From Actinomycetota bacterium (GTDB lineage Bacteria > Actinomycetota > Actinomycetes > Streptosporangiales > Streptosporangiaceae), in assembly GCA_027313705.1 (NCBI GenBank), contig DAHVDE010000058.1, forward strand, positions 1 to 64,000: a DNA stretch of 64,000 nucleotides. The letters run 5' to 3'. Below the pieces are notes generated by a model, which ran no database searches, was not told the DNA's origin, and saw only the letters and a program-made list of their open reading frames with translations. A program made the position numbers and the translations under genes. Below are positions 57,577 to 64,000 of the stretch, in pieces (the stretch's first letter is position 1; each line of letters opens with the position of its first letter).

Positions 57577-57648
57577 GCCCCCATAGCTCAGGGGATAGAG
57601 CAACGGCCTCCGGAGCCGTGTGCGCAGGTTCGAATCCTGCTGGGGGCG
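57577..57648 (+). tRNA. tRNA-Arg (anticodon CCG)
   Basis: A 72-nt cloverleaf: acceptor GCCCCCA pairs with TGGGGGC, D-arm GCTC/GAGC, anticodon stem ACGGC/GCCGT with loop CTCCGGA (anticodon CCG, reads CGG), T-arm GCAGG-TTCGAAT-CCTGC. CCA is not encoded. The 3' part is the left copy of a 41-bp repeat found again at 62905-62945, so this gene is an integration site. Confidence 0.95.
57606..57646 (+). repeat. attL-like repeat in the tRNA-Arg gene
   Basis: Covers the anticodon loop to the end of the acceptor stem. Identical over 41 bases to 62905-62945; the flanks differ at both ends. Confidence 0.85.
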
Positions 57649-57703
57649 CACCCTCTGACCTGGACAAATGCCCGCTGACCTGCCGTTATGACGGGTCGGT
57701 CAT

Positions 57704-57907
57704 TTGATCATGTGCAGCCGGATGCCGCTGAACATACGCGGAACGAACCCAGGTCATCGGCCACCCGAGCCGGTCGCCGCGTGGAAGTCCGAACTCCAAG
57801 CCCGGCAGCGCGATGCCGTCCGTCCCGAGCCCATGCCGCGCGTGCCGCACGCCGAGGCCATTGCGGCCGAGGTCACTCGCATCCCCGAGCCAGAGGCAGC
57901 AGGCTAA
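57704..57907 (+). CDS. Small hypothetical protein of the island
   Basis: 67 residues, rich in Pro, Arg and Ala, no recognised domain. It ends just before the strong ribosome site of the next gene, so the two could be co-translated. Start and reality uncertain. Confidence 0.35.
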   Translation: MIMCSRMPLNIRGTNPGHRPPEPVAAWKSELQARQRDAVRPEPMPRVPHAEAIAAEVTRIPEPEAAG

Positions 57908-57925
57908 GGAAAGGAGGTGCTGACC

Positions 57926-58780
57926 ATGGACGCAGACCAGGTCCCCGACGCCCTCCCCGCCACCGTCATCCGGCCCCGGCCGCTGATCATGGCAGTCATG
58001 ACGCAGTCCCTGACCGAACTCGGACCCGCCAGCCGCACAGCTTTGGCGTGGCAGTGGGTACTCACCGGCCACGGACCGGCTCCCGTCAGCGGGACGCCCG
58101 GCACCGGCAGCCCGCCCACGGACACCGAAATCACCGCCGAGGCGCGGCAGGGCACGGATTCCGCCCCGCCCGAATGCGGCTGGCCGCCCTGGCGGTACGC
58201 CCGCGATCCAGACCCCGACCGGCAGCAGGCCCGCCGCGTCCTGCACTGGCTGACCGGAGCCGCCGACGCCATCCCGCTGTTCGACCCCGGCTGCGGCCGG
58301 CACGTCGGCGACACGCCGATGAGCGCGCTCTCCCGTCGGCACTCGCCGCTCGACCCGGTGACCAACCTCGCCCACCCGGAACCGGCTTACCCCCTAGCCG
58401 ACCTGATCTCCATCAGCGGTGCCGGCTGTGGCGTCACCAACATCGACGGAGAAAACATGGTGTACCTCGATATCGTCATCATGCAAGGACACGAAGGCCA
58501 GCCCCCGGCCGAGCCCGACAGGCACCCGCCACCGCAATGGGGCGAAGGAGTCCAGCAAGTCCACGACTGGGCAACCGGAGAGGATCAGAAGCCTCCCGCC
58601 GACCACCACGGCTGCGGCGACTACCACCCCTGCCCGGCCAACGCCGATGCCAGTGCGAAGCCGCCGGGCACTGCCTCGGCGGCCGGTGCCCAGCGTGCAC
58701 CGAGCACATCTGCGGCGCCGCATGGCCAACGATCGAGTCGACCTTCTAACCTCCGGCATTCAACTCATCCGGCGATTTAG
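57926..58780 (+). CDS. Hypothetical protein of the island
   Basis: 284 residues, not recognised. AAAGGAGG lies 8 bases before ATG 57926, so it is very likely translated. The segment RTALAWQWVLTGHGPAPVSG and a later RQQARRVLHWLTGAADAIPLF resemble, as I recall, hypothetical proteins on actinomycete integrative elements. A Cys/His-rich C-terminal third (HHGCGDYHPCPAN) is low complexity. No membrane helix or signal peptide. Confidence 0.6.
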   Translation: MDADQVPDALPATVIRPRPLIMAVMTQSLTELGPASRTALAWQWVLTGHGPAPVSGTPGTGSPPTDTEITAEARQGTDSAPPECGWPPWRYARDPDPDRQQARRVLHWLTGAADAIPLFDPGCGRHVGDTPMSALSRRHSPLDPVTNLAHPEPAYPLADLISISGAGCGVTNIDGENMVYLDIVIMQGHEGQPPAEPDRHPPPQWGEGVQQVHDWATGEDQKPPADHHGCGDYHPCPANADASAKPPGTASAAGAQRAPSTSAAPHGQRSSRPSNLRHSTHPAI

Positions 58781-58969
58781 CGCTGCCTCTGTTTTCACAG
58801 GGCTTTGAGCTGGGATTTTGTGGCCTTTTCCCTGGCGGCGGGCGTGGCGCGGGCGCACCCGGCGGGTGCGCGGCGCGGGATCACCGGTTCAGCAGCGAAG
58901 GGCGCCCTGGTCCTGGAAGATTTCGGGTTACCACACCAGCGAAAATTCCAGATCGGAGCGCCCTTCGCG

Positions 58970-59490
58970 ATGAAAGGATACGTCCTGAGACCGTGCCCTG
59001 GAGGTCTCTGCCGACGGGCACGGCCTGGTCGGCCACGCCGGCGCGATACTGCTACGCAAGCTCGCCGACCAGTGCGGCCTGACCGCCGCGCTCGACGGGG
59101 CGCTCACCCAGAAGGGAACGTTCCCGCAGCTCGGCAGGGGCATGGTGCTGGTCTCGACGGCGATCGCGATCGCGATGGGCGCCACCGCGATGGCGGACAT
59201 CGCGGTCCTGGACCATCTCGCCCTCGTGCTCGGGGCCGTGCCGTCCGGGTCCACGGTCCGCCGTGTGCTGGGCCTGGCCTCCGACCCGGTCCTGGTGAGG
59301 ATCGCGCAGGCCAGGGCGAGAACCCGCAGGCACGTGTGGGAGCTGATCGAGGAAGCCGGCGGGTTCCCGTGGCTGACGGTCGCGGGCAAGACCCTGGCCG
59401 GGTACGTGGTCATCGACATGGACGCGACCCTGGTCACCGCGCACTCAGGCAAGGAGAAAGCGGCTCCTACCTGGAAAAAAGGGTACGGAC
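58970..59490 (+). pseudogene. IS1380-family transposase, 5' fragment
   Basis: Begins ATGAAAGGATACGTCCTGAG; after one frameshift near 58995 the frame reads LEVSADGHGLVGHAGAILL, VLVSTAIAIAMGATAMADIAVL and GYVVIDMDATLVTAHSGKEKAAP, the N-terminal half of an IS1380-type DDE transposase (the first catalytic Asp is in IDMDAT). It breaks off at WKKGYG and the remaining catalytic domain is missing. Confidence 0.7.
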
Positions 59491-59565
59491 TGTTAACTGA
59501 ACTACCGGCGGCGTCTTCCCAGTTCAGCGGACGTGCGGATTGGCTGTTGGCTACGGTCCCTGCTC

Positions 59566-59710
59566 ATGGCCGATGACGGGAATTTCTTGGACACGGCGGG
59601 GCTGGCGGTCCTGGCGAGGGGTGAGCTGCGAGAGACGGGCAATCCGTGGAAGCCGTTCGAGCTGGTCGACGCGGACGGCGGCGTGGTCGCCCCGGTCGCC
59701 GGCGGTCTCC
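59566..59710 (+). pseudogene. N-terminal fragment of a tyrosine integrase
   Basis: About 48 codons read NFLDTAGLAVLARGELRETG and PWKPFELVDADGGVVAPVA, the start of Tn554-like tyrosine integrases that pair with DUF6262 proteins. The catalytic domain is absent; homology stops near 59710. Confidence 0.5.
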
Positions 59711-59823
59711 GTCATCCGCAAGCACCGCGCGGTCAGCCTCGGCATGCCGGGCACCCGGCCGCACGCGGCCGGATCCCGGGTTCGCCCGTGACCCGGGATC
59801 CGGGCACGCCGCGAACCAGGCCG

Positions 59824-60240
59824 ATGAGGCAAGGGCGCCAGGCCGACTCCGCCCGCCGGCGCCAGCGGGTCACCGCCGCGATAAACAAGGCCTCCGCCGA
59901 CGGCGCCGAGATCAGCGTGTCCGCCATCGCCCGCGCAGCCGGAGTCGACCGCACCTTCCTCTACCGCCACCGCGACCTCCTCGCCCAGGTCCACGCCCTG
60001 GAAGCCGCCCCGCCCGTGACCGGCGCGCACGAACCGGGCACAGCCGTCACCCGGGCATCGCTGCAGGCAGACCTGCTCGCCGCCCACGAACGAGCCACCC
60101 GCCTCACCGCCCGCATCCGCCAGCTCGAGAAGCGGCTGTCGGAATCCCTCGGCGAGCAGGCATGGCGGGAATCCGGGCTCGGCGCCCCCGCCGACATCGA
60201 CGCGCTCACCCAGAAGATCACCTACCTCGAGCAGCAGTCC
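59824..60240 (+). pseudogene. DUF6262/TnpC-like protein, 3' truncated
   Basis: About 139 codons: RRRQRVTAAINKASADGAEI then VSAIARAAGVDRTFLYRHRDLL (helix-turn-helix) and a coiled-coil (ARIRQLEKRLSESLGEQAW, DALTQKITYLEQQ). This is the small third protein of Tn554-like transposition modules. The coiled coil is cut at about 60240, where the ATPase remnant begins in another frame. A GTG at 59788 is an alternative start. Confidence 0.6.
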
Positions 60241-61136
60241 GCACCCTCACCGCCATCACTCCAGCGGACTGTCCCACCTGCCACCAAGAGCTACCGTCCA
60301 CTCTCCTCGATCCGGCTGCGGCGATCGTGGCGATGCCAATTGAGCGCAATATCCAGCTCCTTGAAGAGCAGATTAATCTCTTCCAAGCGATGCGCAGCGA
60401 TCTAACCTGGGCAATTATCCCAAAAGGCAGCAAATAGTCGCGCTTAGCCAACGGATCCGGGCCTTGCAGCAGGCCGTGCGGGCGCAACGAGAAACCTTGG
60501 TGTCCGCTAGCGGAACACCCTCCATCAACGACGCCGAGAGGCGGGTTCACCTGCGCGACCGGCTTGAGGCACTAAACAACGTCGTATTCAGGCTTACAAG
60601 CCTGAATACGACGTTGGTACAGATCGCCCAGACATGGTCCAGCCTGCCGTCGGAACAGGCGGAACTCCGCGAGCAAGGAACCCCCCCAGGCAGACCGGGA
60701 CAAGGTCGACGCCCTGCAAGCGAGCTTTCTCAATCAACTGCGAGACTACGGATTCACAAGCCTGCCAATCTCCGAGCTGACGATCTCGGAGGACACCTAC
60801 CAACCAGTGTACGAGCGCTTCGATCTAGGCTTCGACCTGTCTGCCAGCGACATGGTGCGGAGCATCTGGAGTCATCGGATGGGGTTGCTTGAGGTGGCAC
60901 GCGGATTCACCAACCGCCACGCGCAGCTCCTGATCTTCGACGAGCCACGCCAGCAGAGCACCGATCCCTTGAGTTTCGCCGCGCTCTTCGAGCGAGCAGG
61001 ACAGGCGAATCAGTACGGGCAGCAGGTTATTTTCGCGACGAGTGAACCGGAGGTGAGCGTTCGGGCCATGCTCCAGGGGGTCGCTCACCAATATCTGGGG
61101 TTTGCCGGGAAGATGATCCGGCGGTTGGAGCATTAG
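60240..61136 (+). pseudogene. Rad50/SMC-like ATPase, C-terminal remnant with frameshifts
   Basis: Three frames read on. Piece 1 (to about 60420): CPTCHQELPSTLLDPAA and IQLLEEQINLFQAMRSDL (zinc-hook-like CXXC and coiled coil). Piece 2 (about 60425-60685): QIVALSQRIRALQQAVRAQ and RDRLEALNNVVFRL. Piece 3 (about 60685-61136): SASDMVRSIWSHRMGLLEVA (signature-like) and LLIFDEPRQQ (Walker B) and GQQVIFATSEPE. Frame changes lie near 60400-60425 (AAAA) and at the seven-C run near 60685. Those homopolymers could also be sequencing errors. The N-terminal Walker A half is missing. Confidence 0.6.
60577..60616. repeat. 19-bp perfect palindrome inside the ATPase remnant
   Basis: Arms 60577-60595 and 60598-60616 are exactly complementary, separated by only two bases. 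It falls in sequence that otherwise reads as protein. Confidence 0.85.
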
Positions 61137-61275
61137 CGACGCCGCCTAGCGTCGATTTACAAGGTGCCTCAAACTCCCGCCAGCGCTCAGGATCGTATGC
61201 AGGTCGTGTCTGCGCGCAGCTCTTCCTATCGGAACTACCTGGTACTACGCGGCGCTACTACAGACTACGGTGATG

Positions 61276-61281
61276 TAGGAT
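61276..61281 (+). promoter_or_regulatory. -10 box of a leaderless promoter (toxin-antitoxin operon)
   Basis: TAGGAT ends 6 bases before the ATG at 61288. Repeated CTAC motifs just upstream (about 61235-61270) may be operator sites. Confidence 0.5.
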
Positions 61282-61287
61282 TGGTGC

Positions 61288-61701
61288 ATGAGTCAGCCGC
61301 TGAGCGTCCGACTGAACGATGCCACCCTGGCCCGTCTGGGCAACCGCGCCCAACGGGTCCGTCTGCCGTCCAGGACCCTGGCCCAGCGGTACGTCGAAGA
61401 AGGCCTGCGGATGGACGAGCACCCCCTCATCCGCTTCGCCGACGGCCCGGCCGGACGCCGAGCCCGCCTCATCGGCACCGGCAAGGACATCTGGGAAATC
61501 ATCGCCGTCGTCCAGGACAACGACGGCAACCCCGCCGAAGCCGCCCGCTACCTCGAGCTCCCGCTCGGACTCATCCAGGCCGCCATCGCCTACTACGGCG
61601 CCTACACCGAAGAGATCAACCAGCTCATCGCCCTCAACGAACAGGAAACCGCCGACACCCACGCCGCCTACCTCGCCGGGCAGGCAGCCCTCAGACGGTG
61701 A
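61288..61701 (+). CDS. DUF433-type antitoxin candidate
   Basis: 137 residues. N-terminal LSVRLNDATLARLGNRAQRV with RTLAQRYVEEGLRMDEHPLI (DNA-binding-like), then the DUF433-like helices IWEIIAVVQDNDGNPAEAAR and GLIQAAIAYYGAYTEEINQL. DUF433 proteins are commonly encoded just before a DUF5615 PIN-like protein, as here. Its TGA overlaps the next gene's GTG. Likely represses its own promoter and neutralises the toxin. Confidence 0.8.
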   Translation: MSQPLSVRLNDATLARLGNRAQRVRLPSRTLAQRYVEEGLRMDEHPLIRFADGPAGRRARLIGTGKDIWEIIAVVQDNDGNPAEAARYLELPLGLIQAAIAYYGAYTEEINQLIALNEQETADTHAAYLAGQAALRR

Positions 61702-62057
61702 AACTCCTCCTGGATGAGATGCTCTCACCCGCCATCGCCCGCGAACTGCGCGACCGCGGACACGACGCCCAGGCAGTCGGCGAAGACCCAGCCCGCAAAG
61801 CACTATCCGACCCGGAAGTCCTCGCCCTCGCTGTCGCTGAGCACCGCGCCGTCGTCACTAACAACCTCCGCGACTTCCGGCCCCTCCACAACGAAGCCAT
61901 CACCCCCGGCGGACCCGGCCACTACGGCATGATCTTCATCCCCGGCACCTACCGCCTCACCAGAAACGACACCGGAAAGATCACCACCGCCCTCGAACAA
62001 CTCCTCGACCAGAACCCCGGCGAAGACAACCTCGCCAACGGCGAAGCCTGGCTCTGA
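61698..62057 (+). CDS. DUF5615 PIN-like toxin candidate
   Basis: 119 residues: KLLLDEMLSPAIARELRDRGHDA with the first acidic residues of a PIN-like nuclease, SDPEVLALAVAEHRAVVTNNLRDFRPLH with further conserved Asp/Asn, and a variable C-terminus. DUF5615 proteins resemble VapC RNases. GTG 61698 overlaps the antitoxin stop (GTGA). Confidence 0.8.
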   Translation: MKLLLDEMLSPAIARELRDRGHDAQAVGEDPARKALSDPEVLALAVAEHRAVVTNNLRDFRPLHNEAITPGGPGHYGMIFIPGTYRLTRNDTGKITTALEQLLDQNPGEDNLANGEAWL

Positions 62058-62169
62058 CCGGCAAGCCAACCCGTGCGCCCGATCCCGCCACAGAAATCCC
62101 CTTCCCGTACGCTCCCCGGAAGCAGGCAAAAGTCGCATCCCCGCCGGTCAAAGACCTTCAGCGCATTGC

Positions 62170-62190
62170 CCTCCGGAGCCGTGTGCGCAG
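62170..62190 (+). repeat. Third, partial copy of the tRNA-Arg attachment repeat
   Basis: 21 bases identical to 57607-57627 (anticodon loop to variable arm). The match stops before the T-arm. It is flanked by short inverted bases (CATTGC / GCAATG). Confidence 0.65.
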
Positions 62191-62231
62191 CGCAATGGGT
62201 CCCGGGGCGGCGCAGTACGGGTTCTGCGCTC

Positions 62232-62501
62232 ATGCCCGCCGAAGCCACGGTCTACCATCTGCGCACTCGCAACGGCGACCACGAGATCGACTTCATCGTC
62301 CAGCGTGCCGATCACCGGACCGTCGCCCTGGAAGTCAAGCTCAGCACCAACGTCACCGACACGGACGTCACGCACCTCAAATGGCTGCGCGGTCAGCTAG
62401 GGGACGATCTGCTCGATGCCGCTGTCCTGACCACCGGCCAGCACGCCTACCGGCGCTCGGACGGTATCGCAGTAATTCCTGCCGCCCTACTCGGCCCGTG
62501 A
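62232..62501 (+). pseudogene. C-terminal fragment of a DUF4143 AAA+ ATPase
   Basis: 89 codons: TVYHLRTRNGDHEIDFIVQR, VALEVKLSTNVTDTDV and LDAAVLTTGQHAYRRSDGIAV. This is the nuclease-like C-terminal domain of the AAA+/DUF4143 protein family (EIDFIV... EVK resembles a PD-(D/E)XK core). The ATPase part is missing; the upstream side adjoins the partial tRNA copy. Confidence 0.7.
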
Positions 62502-62610
62502 TTGCCGGGTAAGCATGACAACAGACATCCCATGTTGTTTGTTGTCTGGCCAGGGACGCGACGGTCGGCGGGCAGGCAGGACATCGTTCTCCATGACCTC
62601 CGGCACCCCC

Positions 62611-62641
62611 TTGCACCTGACGTGGCGTCAGGCTCTAACGT
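62611..62641 (+). promoter_or_regulatory. MerR-type promoter/operator
   Basis: TTGCAC and TAACGT are separated by 19 bases, the overlong spacer of MerR-activated promoters. A 7-bp-arm dyad (CCTGACG-TGG-CGTCAGG, 62616-62632) sits in the spacer. Confidence 0.65.
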
Positions 62642-62686
62642 CCGGGATATGACCGGAACGGGCAGCCGGATCGCTCCGGAATCACC

Positions 62687-62820
62687 ATGAAGATCGGCGC
62701 GCTGGCAAAAGCCACCGGGCTGACTATCAGGACGCCGCATTACTACGACCAGATCGGCCTGCTGTGCCCATCGGCACGTCTAGCCGGCGGGCACCGGATC
62801 TACGACGCCGCCGACGCGCG
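62687..62820 (+). pseudogene. MerR-family regulator, truncated after the HTH
   Basis: About 45 codons: KIGALAKATGLTIRTPHYYD and GLLCPSARLAGGHRIYDAAD, the winged-helix start of MerR regulators. Homology ends abruptly near 62820; the frame runs on to 63049 through the attR repeat but is not MerR. The promoter upstream is intact. Confidence 0.7.
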
Positions 62821-62904
62821 AGATACGCGAGAAAGAATCCTGCCGGACGTTCCATCCGGCGTACTTTCGGCAGGTCAGCGCGGTGCCGCAGATTGCCGCG
62901 AACA

Positions 62905-62945
62905 GCCTCCGGAGCCGTGTGCGCAGGTTCGAATCCTGCTGGGGG
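62905..62945 (+). repeat. attR-like copy of the tRNA-Arg 3' end
   Basis: Identical to 57606-57646 over 41 bases. It bounds a segment of about 5.3 kb. The next base differs (T for C), so the acceptor end is not perfect here. Confidence 0.85.
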
Positions 62946-63056
62946 TGCTAGTTAAATGCGCTGGTAGAGGCGGTCTTTCGAAAGAATTGCCGACATCGCT
63001 GCGCGATCTTAGCACCTTGAACGTGCCCGCGATGTCAGTCTGCCTCTGAAGAGAAG

Positions 63057-63098
63057 AAACGGCCCGCTAGCCGAGAATCCGCAGCTAGTGGGCCGTTT
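63057..63098 (+). terminator. Hairpin terminator-like structure
   Basis: Arms 63057-63070 and 63085-63098 form a 14-bp stem with one G-T pair; four T's follow the stem region. It also holds the first of two GCAGCTAGTGG direct repeats (63081-63091, 63101-63111). Confidence 0.5.
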
Positions 63099-63108
63099 TC
63101 GCAGCTAG

Positions 63109-63160
63109 TGGCAGGTGCTGGGTTCGAACCAGCGTAGCTTACGCGACGGTTTTACAGACC
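63109..63160 (-). pseudogene. 3' half of a tRNA-Tyr gene
   Basis: Minus strand reads anticodon stem and loop GGTCTGTAAAACC (anticodon GTA), a long class II variable arm, T-arm GCTGGTTCGAACCCAGC, and acceptor 3' CACCTGCC plus A. The 5' half is absent; on that side the sequence becomes the Fic-like frame. This is the form left by integration into a tRNA gene. Confidence 0.65.
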
Positions 63161-63163
63161 TGT

Positions 63164-63685
63164 CGCTACGCCAAGCTCAGCTCCGCCGGCCAGGTCAGGA
63201 TCGTCATCCCCACCGTGTACCGAAACAACTACCTGGCCGCCCTCATGGGCCTGAGCAACCAGGCAGGGACCGGAGAAAGCCTCACCGCGGTCCTCCAATT
63301 CACACAACGCTGGACAGCAGCGATCAACTGGTCAACTTTCGAGGCCGCCAACGCGGACCTCACCGCCAGCAATGCCTACCTTGATCCCGGCATCGCAGAT
63401 AACACCGGGCAACGACTCCAGCTGCCCCGCTTAGCGCCGCTCCGGCTCCTGGAGATCGGCGAGGCCGTCAAGGCACTCCCCGCGGACCTGCTCGCCGCCC
63501 AGCCGCAGATTCCCTGGCGGCAGATCACCAGAATGCGCGACCACCTCGCCCACCGCTACTTCGACACCGCCCACGCCATCCTCCAGGCCACCGTCGACGA
63601 GGACCTCCCGCCACTCGGACAAGCGGTAACCGAACTGATCCGATCACTGCCCGACTACCCGCCAGCCAGCCAGAACCCAGCCTGA
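63164..63685 (+). pseudogene. Chimeric ORF: Fic C-terminal tail fused to HepT tail
   Basis: An uninterrupted frame begins inside the tRNA-Tyr remnant without a proper start (first usable GTG 63215). Part 1 (to about 63430): VRIVIPTVYRNNYLAALMGL, FTQRWTAAINWSTFEAANADL and SNAYLDPGIADNTGQRLQLP, the C-terminal tail of Fic-domain proteins. Part 2 (about 63440-63640): LLEIGEAVKALPADLLAAQP and ITRMRDHLAHRYFDTAHAIL with the RX4HXY motif of HepT (DUF86) toxins. Both lack their N-terminal parts. Confidence 0.65.
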
Positions 63686-63810
63686 GCAACAGACGCCAGA
63701 ACGTGGCCGACGGCCGACGATATCGCAGCAATCTCGGCGCATGTCCGCTGCCGGACGACACTGCTATCGCCTGGCTGAGCCCCGCCCGGTGCGTCCCCGG
63801 CCTCCTGGCC

Positions 63811-63837
63811 GGTTAGCGAGCAAGCGGCTCGCTAACC
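63811..63837 (+). promoter_or_regulatory. Hairpin/operator upstream of the APH gene
   Basis: 11-bp perfect arms 63811-63821 and 63827-63837 around AAGCG, ending 5 bases before the -10 box. It could be a repressor site or the terminator of the upstream ORF. Confidence 0.45.
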
Positions 63838-63842
63838 GTGGT

Positions 63843-63848
63843 TATCCT
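63843..63848 (+). promoter_or_regulatory. -10 box of a leaderless promoter (APH gene)
   Basis: TATCCT ends 7 bases before the GTG at 63856; no ribosome binding site. Confidence 0.55.
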
Positions 63849-63855
63849 GGCGATT

Positions 63856-64000
63856 GTGACGGCCTCGGTTTCAGACGGCTGGATGTCCGCTGGCCCGGCG
63901 CGGCCGGATATCCCGGTTCCGGCGGCCGTCGCGGACCTGGCCAGCGGGGCGGCTGTCCCGGTATGGCGGAACGACGCTGGCGGCGTGGTCTTCGAGGTCA
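63856..64000 (+). CDS. Aminoglycoside phosphotransferase-like protein, 5' part
   Basis: The first 48 codons, cut by the window edge: DIPVPAAVADLASGAAVPVWRNDAGGVVFEV. The pattern WRN(D/E)XGGVXFEV is the start of APH(3')-like phosphotransferases. Chosen start is GTG 63856, preceded by the TANNNT box. Confidence 0.6.
   Translation, partial: MTASVSDGWMSAGPARPDIPVPAAVADLASGAAVPVWRNDAGGVVFEV

What the first reader, a model, noticed from the sequence alone, without database searches (positions are those of the whole stretch)
63164..63685. One open frame fuses the tails of two different toxin families (Fic and HepT)
The frame passes without a stop from a Fic C-terminal tail into the HepT C-terminal half containing RMRDHLAHRYFD (RX4HXY). 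Both partners lack their N-terminal parts. Chance in-frame fusion of two decayed genes is the simple reading; retention of an open frame of more than 500 bases and an intact HepT active motif leaves room for a domesticated small protein.
Basis: partly seen in the sequence, partly recalled or inferred. Interest (0 to 1): 0.55.

Follow-up and report, generated by a model that had tools for sequence, protein, structure and literature searches.

The report
Accidental joint of two gene remnants
A stretch that reads as one small protein is most likely two leftover gene ends, one from a Fic enzyme and one from a HepT RNase toxin, joined in frame by chance in a DNA-insertion hotspot.

Summary
The open frame 63164-63685 passes from the last ~87 residues of a Fic-type protein (76% identical to the tail of a 292-aa Fic frame in a family member) into the last ~80 residues of a HepT toxin (Pfam HepT-like, profile 33-118 of 120; RX4HXY intact). 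The joint lies at about 63425-63441. The functional reading gains no support. None of 152 fetched loci holds both pieces, and no match in another searched genome spans both halves. One relative carries the two as separate genes. The Fic piece lacks the catalytic motif. The HepT piece lacks helix 1, half of helix 2 (dimer interface in a published relative) and any MntA partner, whose motif 65 of 69 homologues have upstream. The open frame is unremarkable: resampled sequence of this composition gives about 7 such frames per 6.35 kb. The Fic piece abuts a tRNA-Tyr 3' half, about 220 bp beyond a 48-bp copy of the tRNA-Arg 3' end, among other gene fragments. Verdict: an ordinary in-frame chimera of decayed genes. 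The HepT piece's conserved residues fit a recent joint as well as selection on the fusion; strains of the same species, which would decide, were not available.

The parts
63164..63685 (+). open frame joining a Fic tail to a HepT C-terminal part (stop codon 63683-63685; first start codon GTG 63215, 156 aa)
63168..63427 (+). C-terminal ~87 residues of a Fic-family protein, up to about one codon before its natural stop; catalytic motif absent
   Evidence: 76% aa to L005 (G051:C61), whose gene ends LILPP-stop where the window reads LQLPRLAP; motif scan
63425..63441 (+). junction: Fic DNA similarity ends at 63417 (protein similarity to 63427), HepT DNA similarity starts at 63437-63446
63437..63685 (+). 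C-terminal ~80 residues of a HepT toxin with RX4HXY; helix 1 and half of helix 2 missing
63099..63160 (-). 3' half of a tRNA-Tyr gene (anticodon stem to 3' end) with about 8 bp of what follows it; 63050-63160 as a whole matches G000:C95 (87%)
   Evidence: complete tRNA-Tyr at G000:C19; the ten tRNA-Tyr-type matches other than the window itself end at window 63157-63160
62901..62948 (+). 48-bp direct copy (96%) of the 3' part of the tRNA-Arg(CCG) gene at 57577-57649; probable element end (att remnant, inferred)
57577..57649 (+). tRNA-Arg (CCG), with further 3' copies downstream of it in G001 and G004: an insertion site in the genus (inferred)

Best explanation
The frame is a composite remnant. 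A fic gene and a mntA-hepT operon, probably cargo of elements that insert at tRNA-Arg and tRNA-Tyr sites, were broken by rearrangement: the Fic 5' part was lost at a joint to a tRNA-Tyr 3' half, and a second deletion joined the last sense codons of fic to an internal codon of hepT. The second joint fell in the frame of both pieces (one chance in three, given that both lie in the same orientation), so the pieces read through. Shown: identity of the pieces, the breakpoints, separate parent genes in a relative, the missing parts, no other copy in the collections searched. Inferred: the order of events, arrival on mobile elements, and that no functional protein is made.
For: Separate parents in one relative: Fic in G051:C61 (76% aa, its own TAG at the Fic end) and HepT in G051:C14 (73%). 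No locus of 152 holds both pieces. 62 of 62 genome-contig loci match only from residue 91 on. Of 69 HepT homologues with 750 nt upstream on hand, 65 have an MntA-type GSX10DXD motif there, against 1 of 69 on the opposite strand and 1 of 66 downstream as controls; the window has none in 1,500 nt on either strand. No other HepT-like hit and no Polbeta hit in this genome. Fic motif absent from 60001-63685 in six frames. The Fic piece has a higher Ka than L005 to each of six more distant Fic relatives (6 of 6, not independent), as slight decay would give. AlphaFold: intact HepT pLDDT 85.4, fusion 57.2 with pTM 0.35 (the alignment of the fusion had no Fic rows). Neighbouring fragments: a frame that matches only positions 126-160 of 160 of DUF4143, and a MerR head. 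tRNA copies.
Against: The HepT piece departs at 0 of 27 positions conserved in 90% or more of 52 relatives, and its Ka/Ks against eight relatives is 0.14-0.35, so it shows little decay. The relatives were found with patterns from this sequence and kept at over 50% identity to it, which favours that result, and a recent joint explains it as well. Only one genome per species is held, so strain-level conservation was not tested. No integrase was recognised in the frames scanned.
Confidence: 0.92

Rival explanations
1. A domesticated small chimeric protein: the HepT half keeps its RNA-binding or adenylylation surface and is expressed, for instance as a decoy for MntA antitoxins.
For: Open frame and RX4HXY kept; 0 of 27 conserved positions broken in the HepT half, Ka/Ks 0.14-0.35.
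Against: No other copy; helix 1 and half of helix 2 gone, which form most of the dimer interface of a Legionella HEPN toxin (PMC11586414, passages); no start codon with a good Shine-Dalgarno match (best 4 of 6 at 12 nt); no MntA motif nearby. No sigma-70-type site was found in 62500-64000, but shuffles give only 0.3, so that absence says little.
Confidence: 0.04
2. An assembly error (chimeric join) in a draft genome with 4.28% estimated contamination.
For: Draft assembly of 118 contigs.
Against: The pieces lie about 12 kb inside a 76-kb contig, with further gene and tRNA fragments around them. No second copy of either piece was found in the assembly (two other Fic-domain genes exist, whose tails did not match), so no repeat explains a mis-join. 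Reads were not available.
Confidence: 0.04

Closest known systems
HepT toxin of the type VII HepT/MntA (HEPN/MNT) toxin-antitoxin system, PF01934
   Same: ~80 C-terminal residues, up to 76% aa identity over 72-76 residues to members with an open N-terminal part (L029, L006, L007); RX4HXY intact
   Different: First ~40 residues (helix 1, half of helix 2) and the MntA gene missing; joined to a foreign N-terminal part
Fic/DOC-family protein of G051:C61 (L005)
   Same: C-terminal ~87 residues at 76% identity
   Different: Fic domain with its HPFxxGNGR motif missing; natural stop lost
Gene debris in tRNA-associated genomic islands, including in-frame chimeric pseudogenes (general knowledge, from no call)
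   Same: Truncated genes beside 3' halves of tRNA genes, in a region that varies between species
   Different: Here two remnants happen to share a frame

Membership tests
HepT (type VII toxin) | Pfam HepT-like domain above cut-off | tested here: met
   47.7 bits, cut-off 23.5, but only profile 33-118 of 120
HepT (type VII toxin) | NCBIfam HepT equivalog NF047751 above cut-off | tested here: not met
   15.2 bits, cut-off 60; whether intact relatives of this branch pass was not tested
HepT (type VII toxin) | RX4HXY motif | tested here: met
   RDHLAHRY; motif as defined in PMC7641770 (passages)
HepT (type VII toxin) | complete helical domain including helices 1 and 2 of the dimer interface | tested here: not met
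   piece starts at residue 41 of the L007 HepT; modelled helices 3-26 and 32-51
HepT (type VII toxin) | adjacent MntA antitoxin with GSX10DXD | tested here: not met
   none in 1,500 nt upstream, both strands; 65 of 69 homologues have it within 750 nt, controls 1 of 69 and 1 of 66
HepT (type VII toxin) | RNase activity and neutralisation by adenylylation | not testable with these tools
   bench assay needed
Fic/DOC | Fic domain and HPFx[D/E]GNGR-type motif (motif recalled; seen as HPFDDGNGR in L005) | tested here: not met
   no PF02661 hit; no motif in 60001-63685, six frames
tRNA-associated integrated element | direct repeats of the tRNA 3' end | tested here: met
   48 bp, 96%
tRNA-associated integrated element | integrase gene | tested here: inconclusive
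   none recognised among the frames scanned between 57686 and 63049; not all frames were scanned

The most novel reading that the evidence does not exclude
A newly born chimeric protein, expressed from the fused frame, in which the HepT C-terminal part acts as a decoy substrate or inhibitor for incoming HepT/MntA systems.
Probability: 0.03. Interest if true: 0.45.

Novelty: new member of a known kind. Interest (0 to 1): 0.1.

Why it matters
Little by itself. It is a clear example of how tRNA-linked islands can leave in-frame chimeras of toxin-gene remnants that a gene caller could list as a protein with a toxin domain, and of why an open frame at 67% G+C is weak evidence of function.

Tried and rejected
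Conserved fusion: sought in 149 relatives (own genome included), 341 family genomes (own included; for many genomes only the best 10 first-look candidates were scored), genome contigs (62 loci), viral contigs (no relative; an exact 27-base junction pattern, 0), plasmids (5 records, Fic half only) and phages (none); not found. No metagenome scan was allowed. The three Fic-half patterns are specific to this sequence: the G051 Fic tail differs from at least the first, and no Fic locus was returned. Those scans therefore say little about Fic alone; a fusion would still have been reached through the three HepT patterns.

Branch counts by codon position for the HepT half were too few and too dependent on the outgroup to tell relaxed from purifying selection (window first+second to third position 9:9 against 5:6 for L029 with L007 as outgroup; 5:4 against 9:9 with L055). 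A mixed alignment of Fic and HepT rows misplaced the Fic rows and was not used; the fold used HepT rows only (A4), so the low confidence of its Fic part is partly for lack of rows. A PDB sequence search gave only one match, E=0.35, taken as chance. PADLOC gave nothing. Literature: a search for six terms around Fic, HEPN and gene fusion listed 2 papers holding 5 of 6, and a search for Fic, HepT, fusion protein and toxin-antitoxin together listed none, in an open-licence library only; of PMC3710099, PMC7641770 and PMC11586414 I saw passages, of the rest listings and abstract starts.

Full report
Observation. The window is 64,000 bases of a 76,013-base contig (C38) in a draft genome of 5.31 Mb and 118 contigs. 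The frame 63164-63685 is open; stop to stop it has 198 codons, and its first ATG/GTG/TTG is GTG 63215. The C-terminal half is HepT-like (PF01934, E=1.5e-12, profile 33-118 of 120). The N-terminal half has no Pfam Fic match, but it is 76% identical over residues 3-92 to the end of a Fic frame in G051:C61, which itself scores as Fic (E=7.2e-12, residues 119-206 of 292).

Anatomy of the joint. The G051 Fic ends ...GQRLILPP-stop; the window reads ...GQRLQLPRLAPLRLLEIGEAVK. Longer HepT genes read ...FDAVRIRLLEIGEAVK. So the window keeps Fic to within about one codon of its natural stop and picks up HepT at about residue 41 of the L007 protein. DNA similarity to Fic ends at 63417 and to HepT begins at 63437-63446 in the closer relatives. 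On the other side, similarity to tRNA-Tyr genes ends at 63157-63160 and DNA similarity to Fic begins at 63168. The Fic piece is therefore cut on both sides.

Is the open frame surprising? No. In 300 order-1 resamples of 57650-64000 the mean number of frames of 174 codons or more was 7.3 and every resample had at least one; the window itself has 115 such frames, 55 of them at least 80% covered by a longer frame. Given two intact tails in the same orientation, one joint in three is in frame (arithmetic).

Is the fusion found elsewhere? 33 of 341 family genomes, own included, have a match, and 25 of 149 in the wider set. No match in another genome spans both halves: matches to the Fic half end by residue 101, and matches to the HepT half start no earlier than residue 69. 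The HepT matches that nominally reach back over the joint (start 69-88) are weak or distant HepT genes; the two printed from residue 68 on (L015, L022) show the HepT gene's own N-terminal part aligned loosely, not a Fic tail. In genome contigs 62 of 62 loci match only from residue 91 on. Of 152 fetched loci other than the window's own stretch, 109 have a match at E 1e-3: 8 to the Fic half, 99 to the HepT half, 2 (L015, L022) as just said; none has both pieces. Several of these loci are overlapping stretches of the same place, so these are not independent counts. In G051 the two pieces belong to separate genes on separate contigs.

What is missing? Of 73 distinct HepT homologues (E 1e-9 or better), 69 had 750 nt upstream on hand and 65 of these carry an MntA-type GSX10DXD motif there; on the opposite strand of the same stretches 1 of 69 does, and downstream 1 of 66. 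The window has none within 1,500 nt on either strand. The genome has no other HepT-like hit, no Polbeta hit, and six matches to the MntA-like protein of L007, all within its residues 6-94 (helix-turn-helix part), outside its nucleotidyltransferase domain at 103-165; the family PF01909 itself was not searched in the genome. An AlphaFold model of the L007 HepT (117 residues, pLDDT 85.4) has helix 1 at residues 3-26 and helix 2 at 32-51; the window piece starts at residue 41. In a Legionella HEPN toxin the dimer interface is mainly helices 1 and 2 and the RX4HXY loop (PMC11586414, passages); that paper also argues that RX4HXY is not the catalytic site there, whereas PMC7641770 (passages) treats RX4H as the RNase motif. 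The fusion is predicted poorly (pLDDT 57.2, pTM 0.35), partly because its alignment had no Fic rows.

Setting. Upstream lies tRNA-Arg(CCG) at 57577-57649, whose 3' 48 bases recur at 62901-62948 (96%). The DNA just before this tRNA is shared with G001-G004; beyond the tRNA the similarity stops within about 45 bases in G001, G002 and G004 except for further tRNA copies, and the G003 contig ends at the tRNA. G001:C303 has three further tRNA-Arg 3' copies in a row and G004:C101 one, as expected for stacked insertions. G028:C259 carries a hepT with its mntA-like gene, a tRNA-Arg 3' copy and a relative of 61375-61640 within about 1.9 kb, so these modules occur together elsewhere. Around the fusion lie fragments: a DUF4143 tail in 62073-62501 and a MerR head in 62687-63049. 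No integrase was recognised in the frames scanned. PMC3710099 (a table passage) lists Fic/Doc-like toxin genes as neighbours of another HEPN family, so finding both kinds in one island is not strange.

Selection. Ka/Ks of the HepT half against eight relatives is 0.14-0.35. For the Fic half it is 0.15 against L005 and 0.50-0.91 against six more distant relatives, where L005 itself gives 0.41-0.68; the window's Ka exceeds that of L005 for all six, a slight sign of relaxed constraint. The HepT half breaks 0 of 27 conserved positions, as do 19 of 52 relatives. These values reflect mostly the parents' history. They say that the joint is young or that decay is slow; they do not test selection on the fusion, and the choice of relatives favours the window.

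Conclusion. An in-frame chimera of two decayed genes in a tRNA-linked island.

Noticed in passing
window 57577-62948: tRNA-Arg(CCG) with a 48-bp direct copy 5.3 kb downstream and a shorter partial copy at about 62160-62190; further copies lie downstream of the same tRNA in G001 and G004.
   Followed up: partly
window 61288-62057: An apparently intact two-gene pair: a 137-aa frame (no Pfam match; it reminded me of DUF433, from memory) followed by a DUF5615 PIN-like protein; 79% DNA identity over 770 bp to G004:C60, there about 1.7 kb from a complete tRNA-Tyr.
   Followed up: partly
window 60577-60616: A perfect 19-bp inverted repeat with a 2-bp spacer.
   Followed up: no
window 60807-61136: A 109-aa frame that matches only positions 566-672 of the 673-position phrog_25112 (E=2.5e-19), which looks like another C-terminal fragment.
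   Followed up: no
window 59533-60405: A 290-aa frame with a DUF6262 match (E=1.7e-8, residues 98-203) inside the tRNA-Arg interval.
   Followed up: no
L008 (G015:C177) about 1350-1680: A second hepT that looks decayed: its sequence continues across more than one frame and it has no MntA motif within 750 nt upstream.
   Followed up: no
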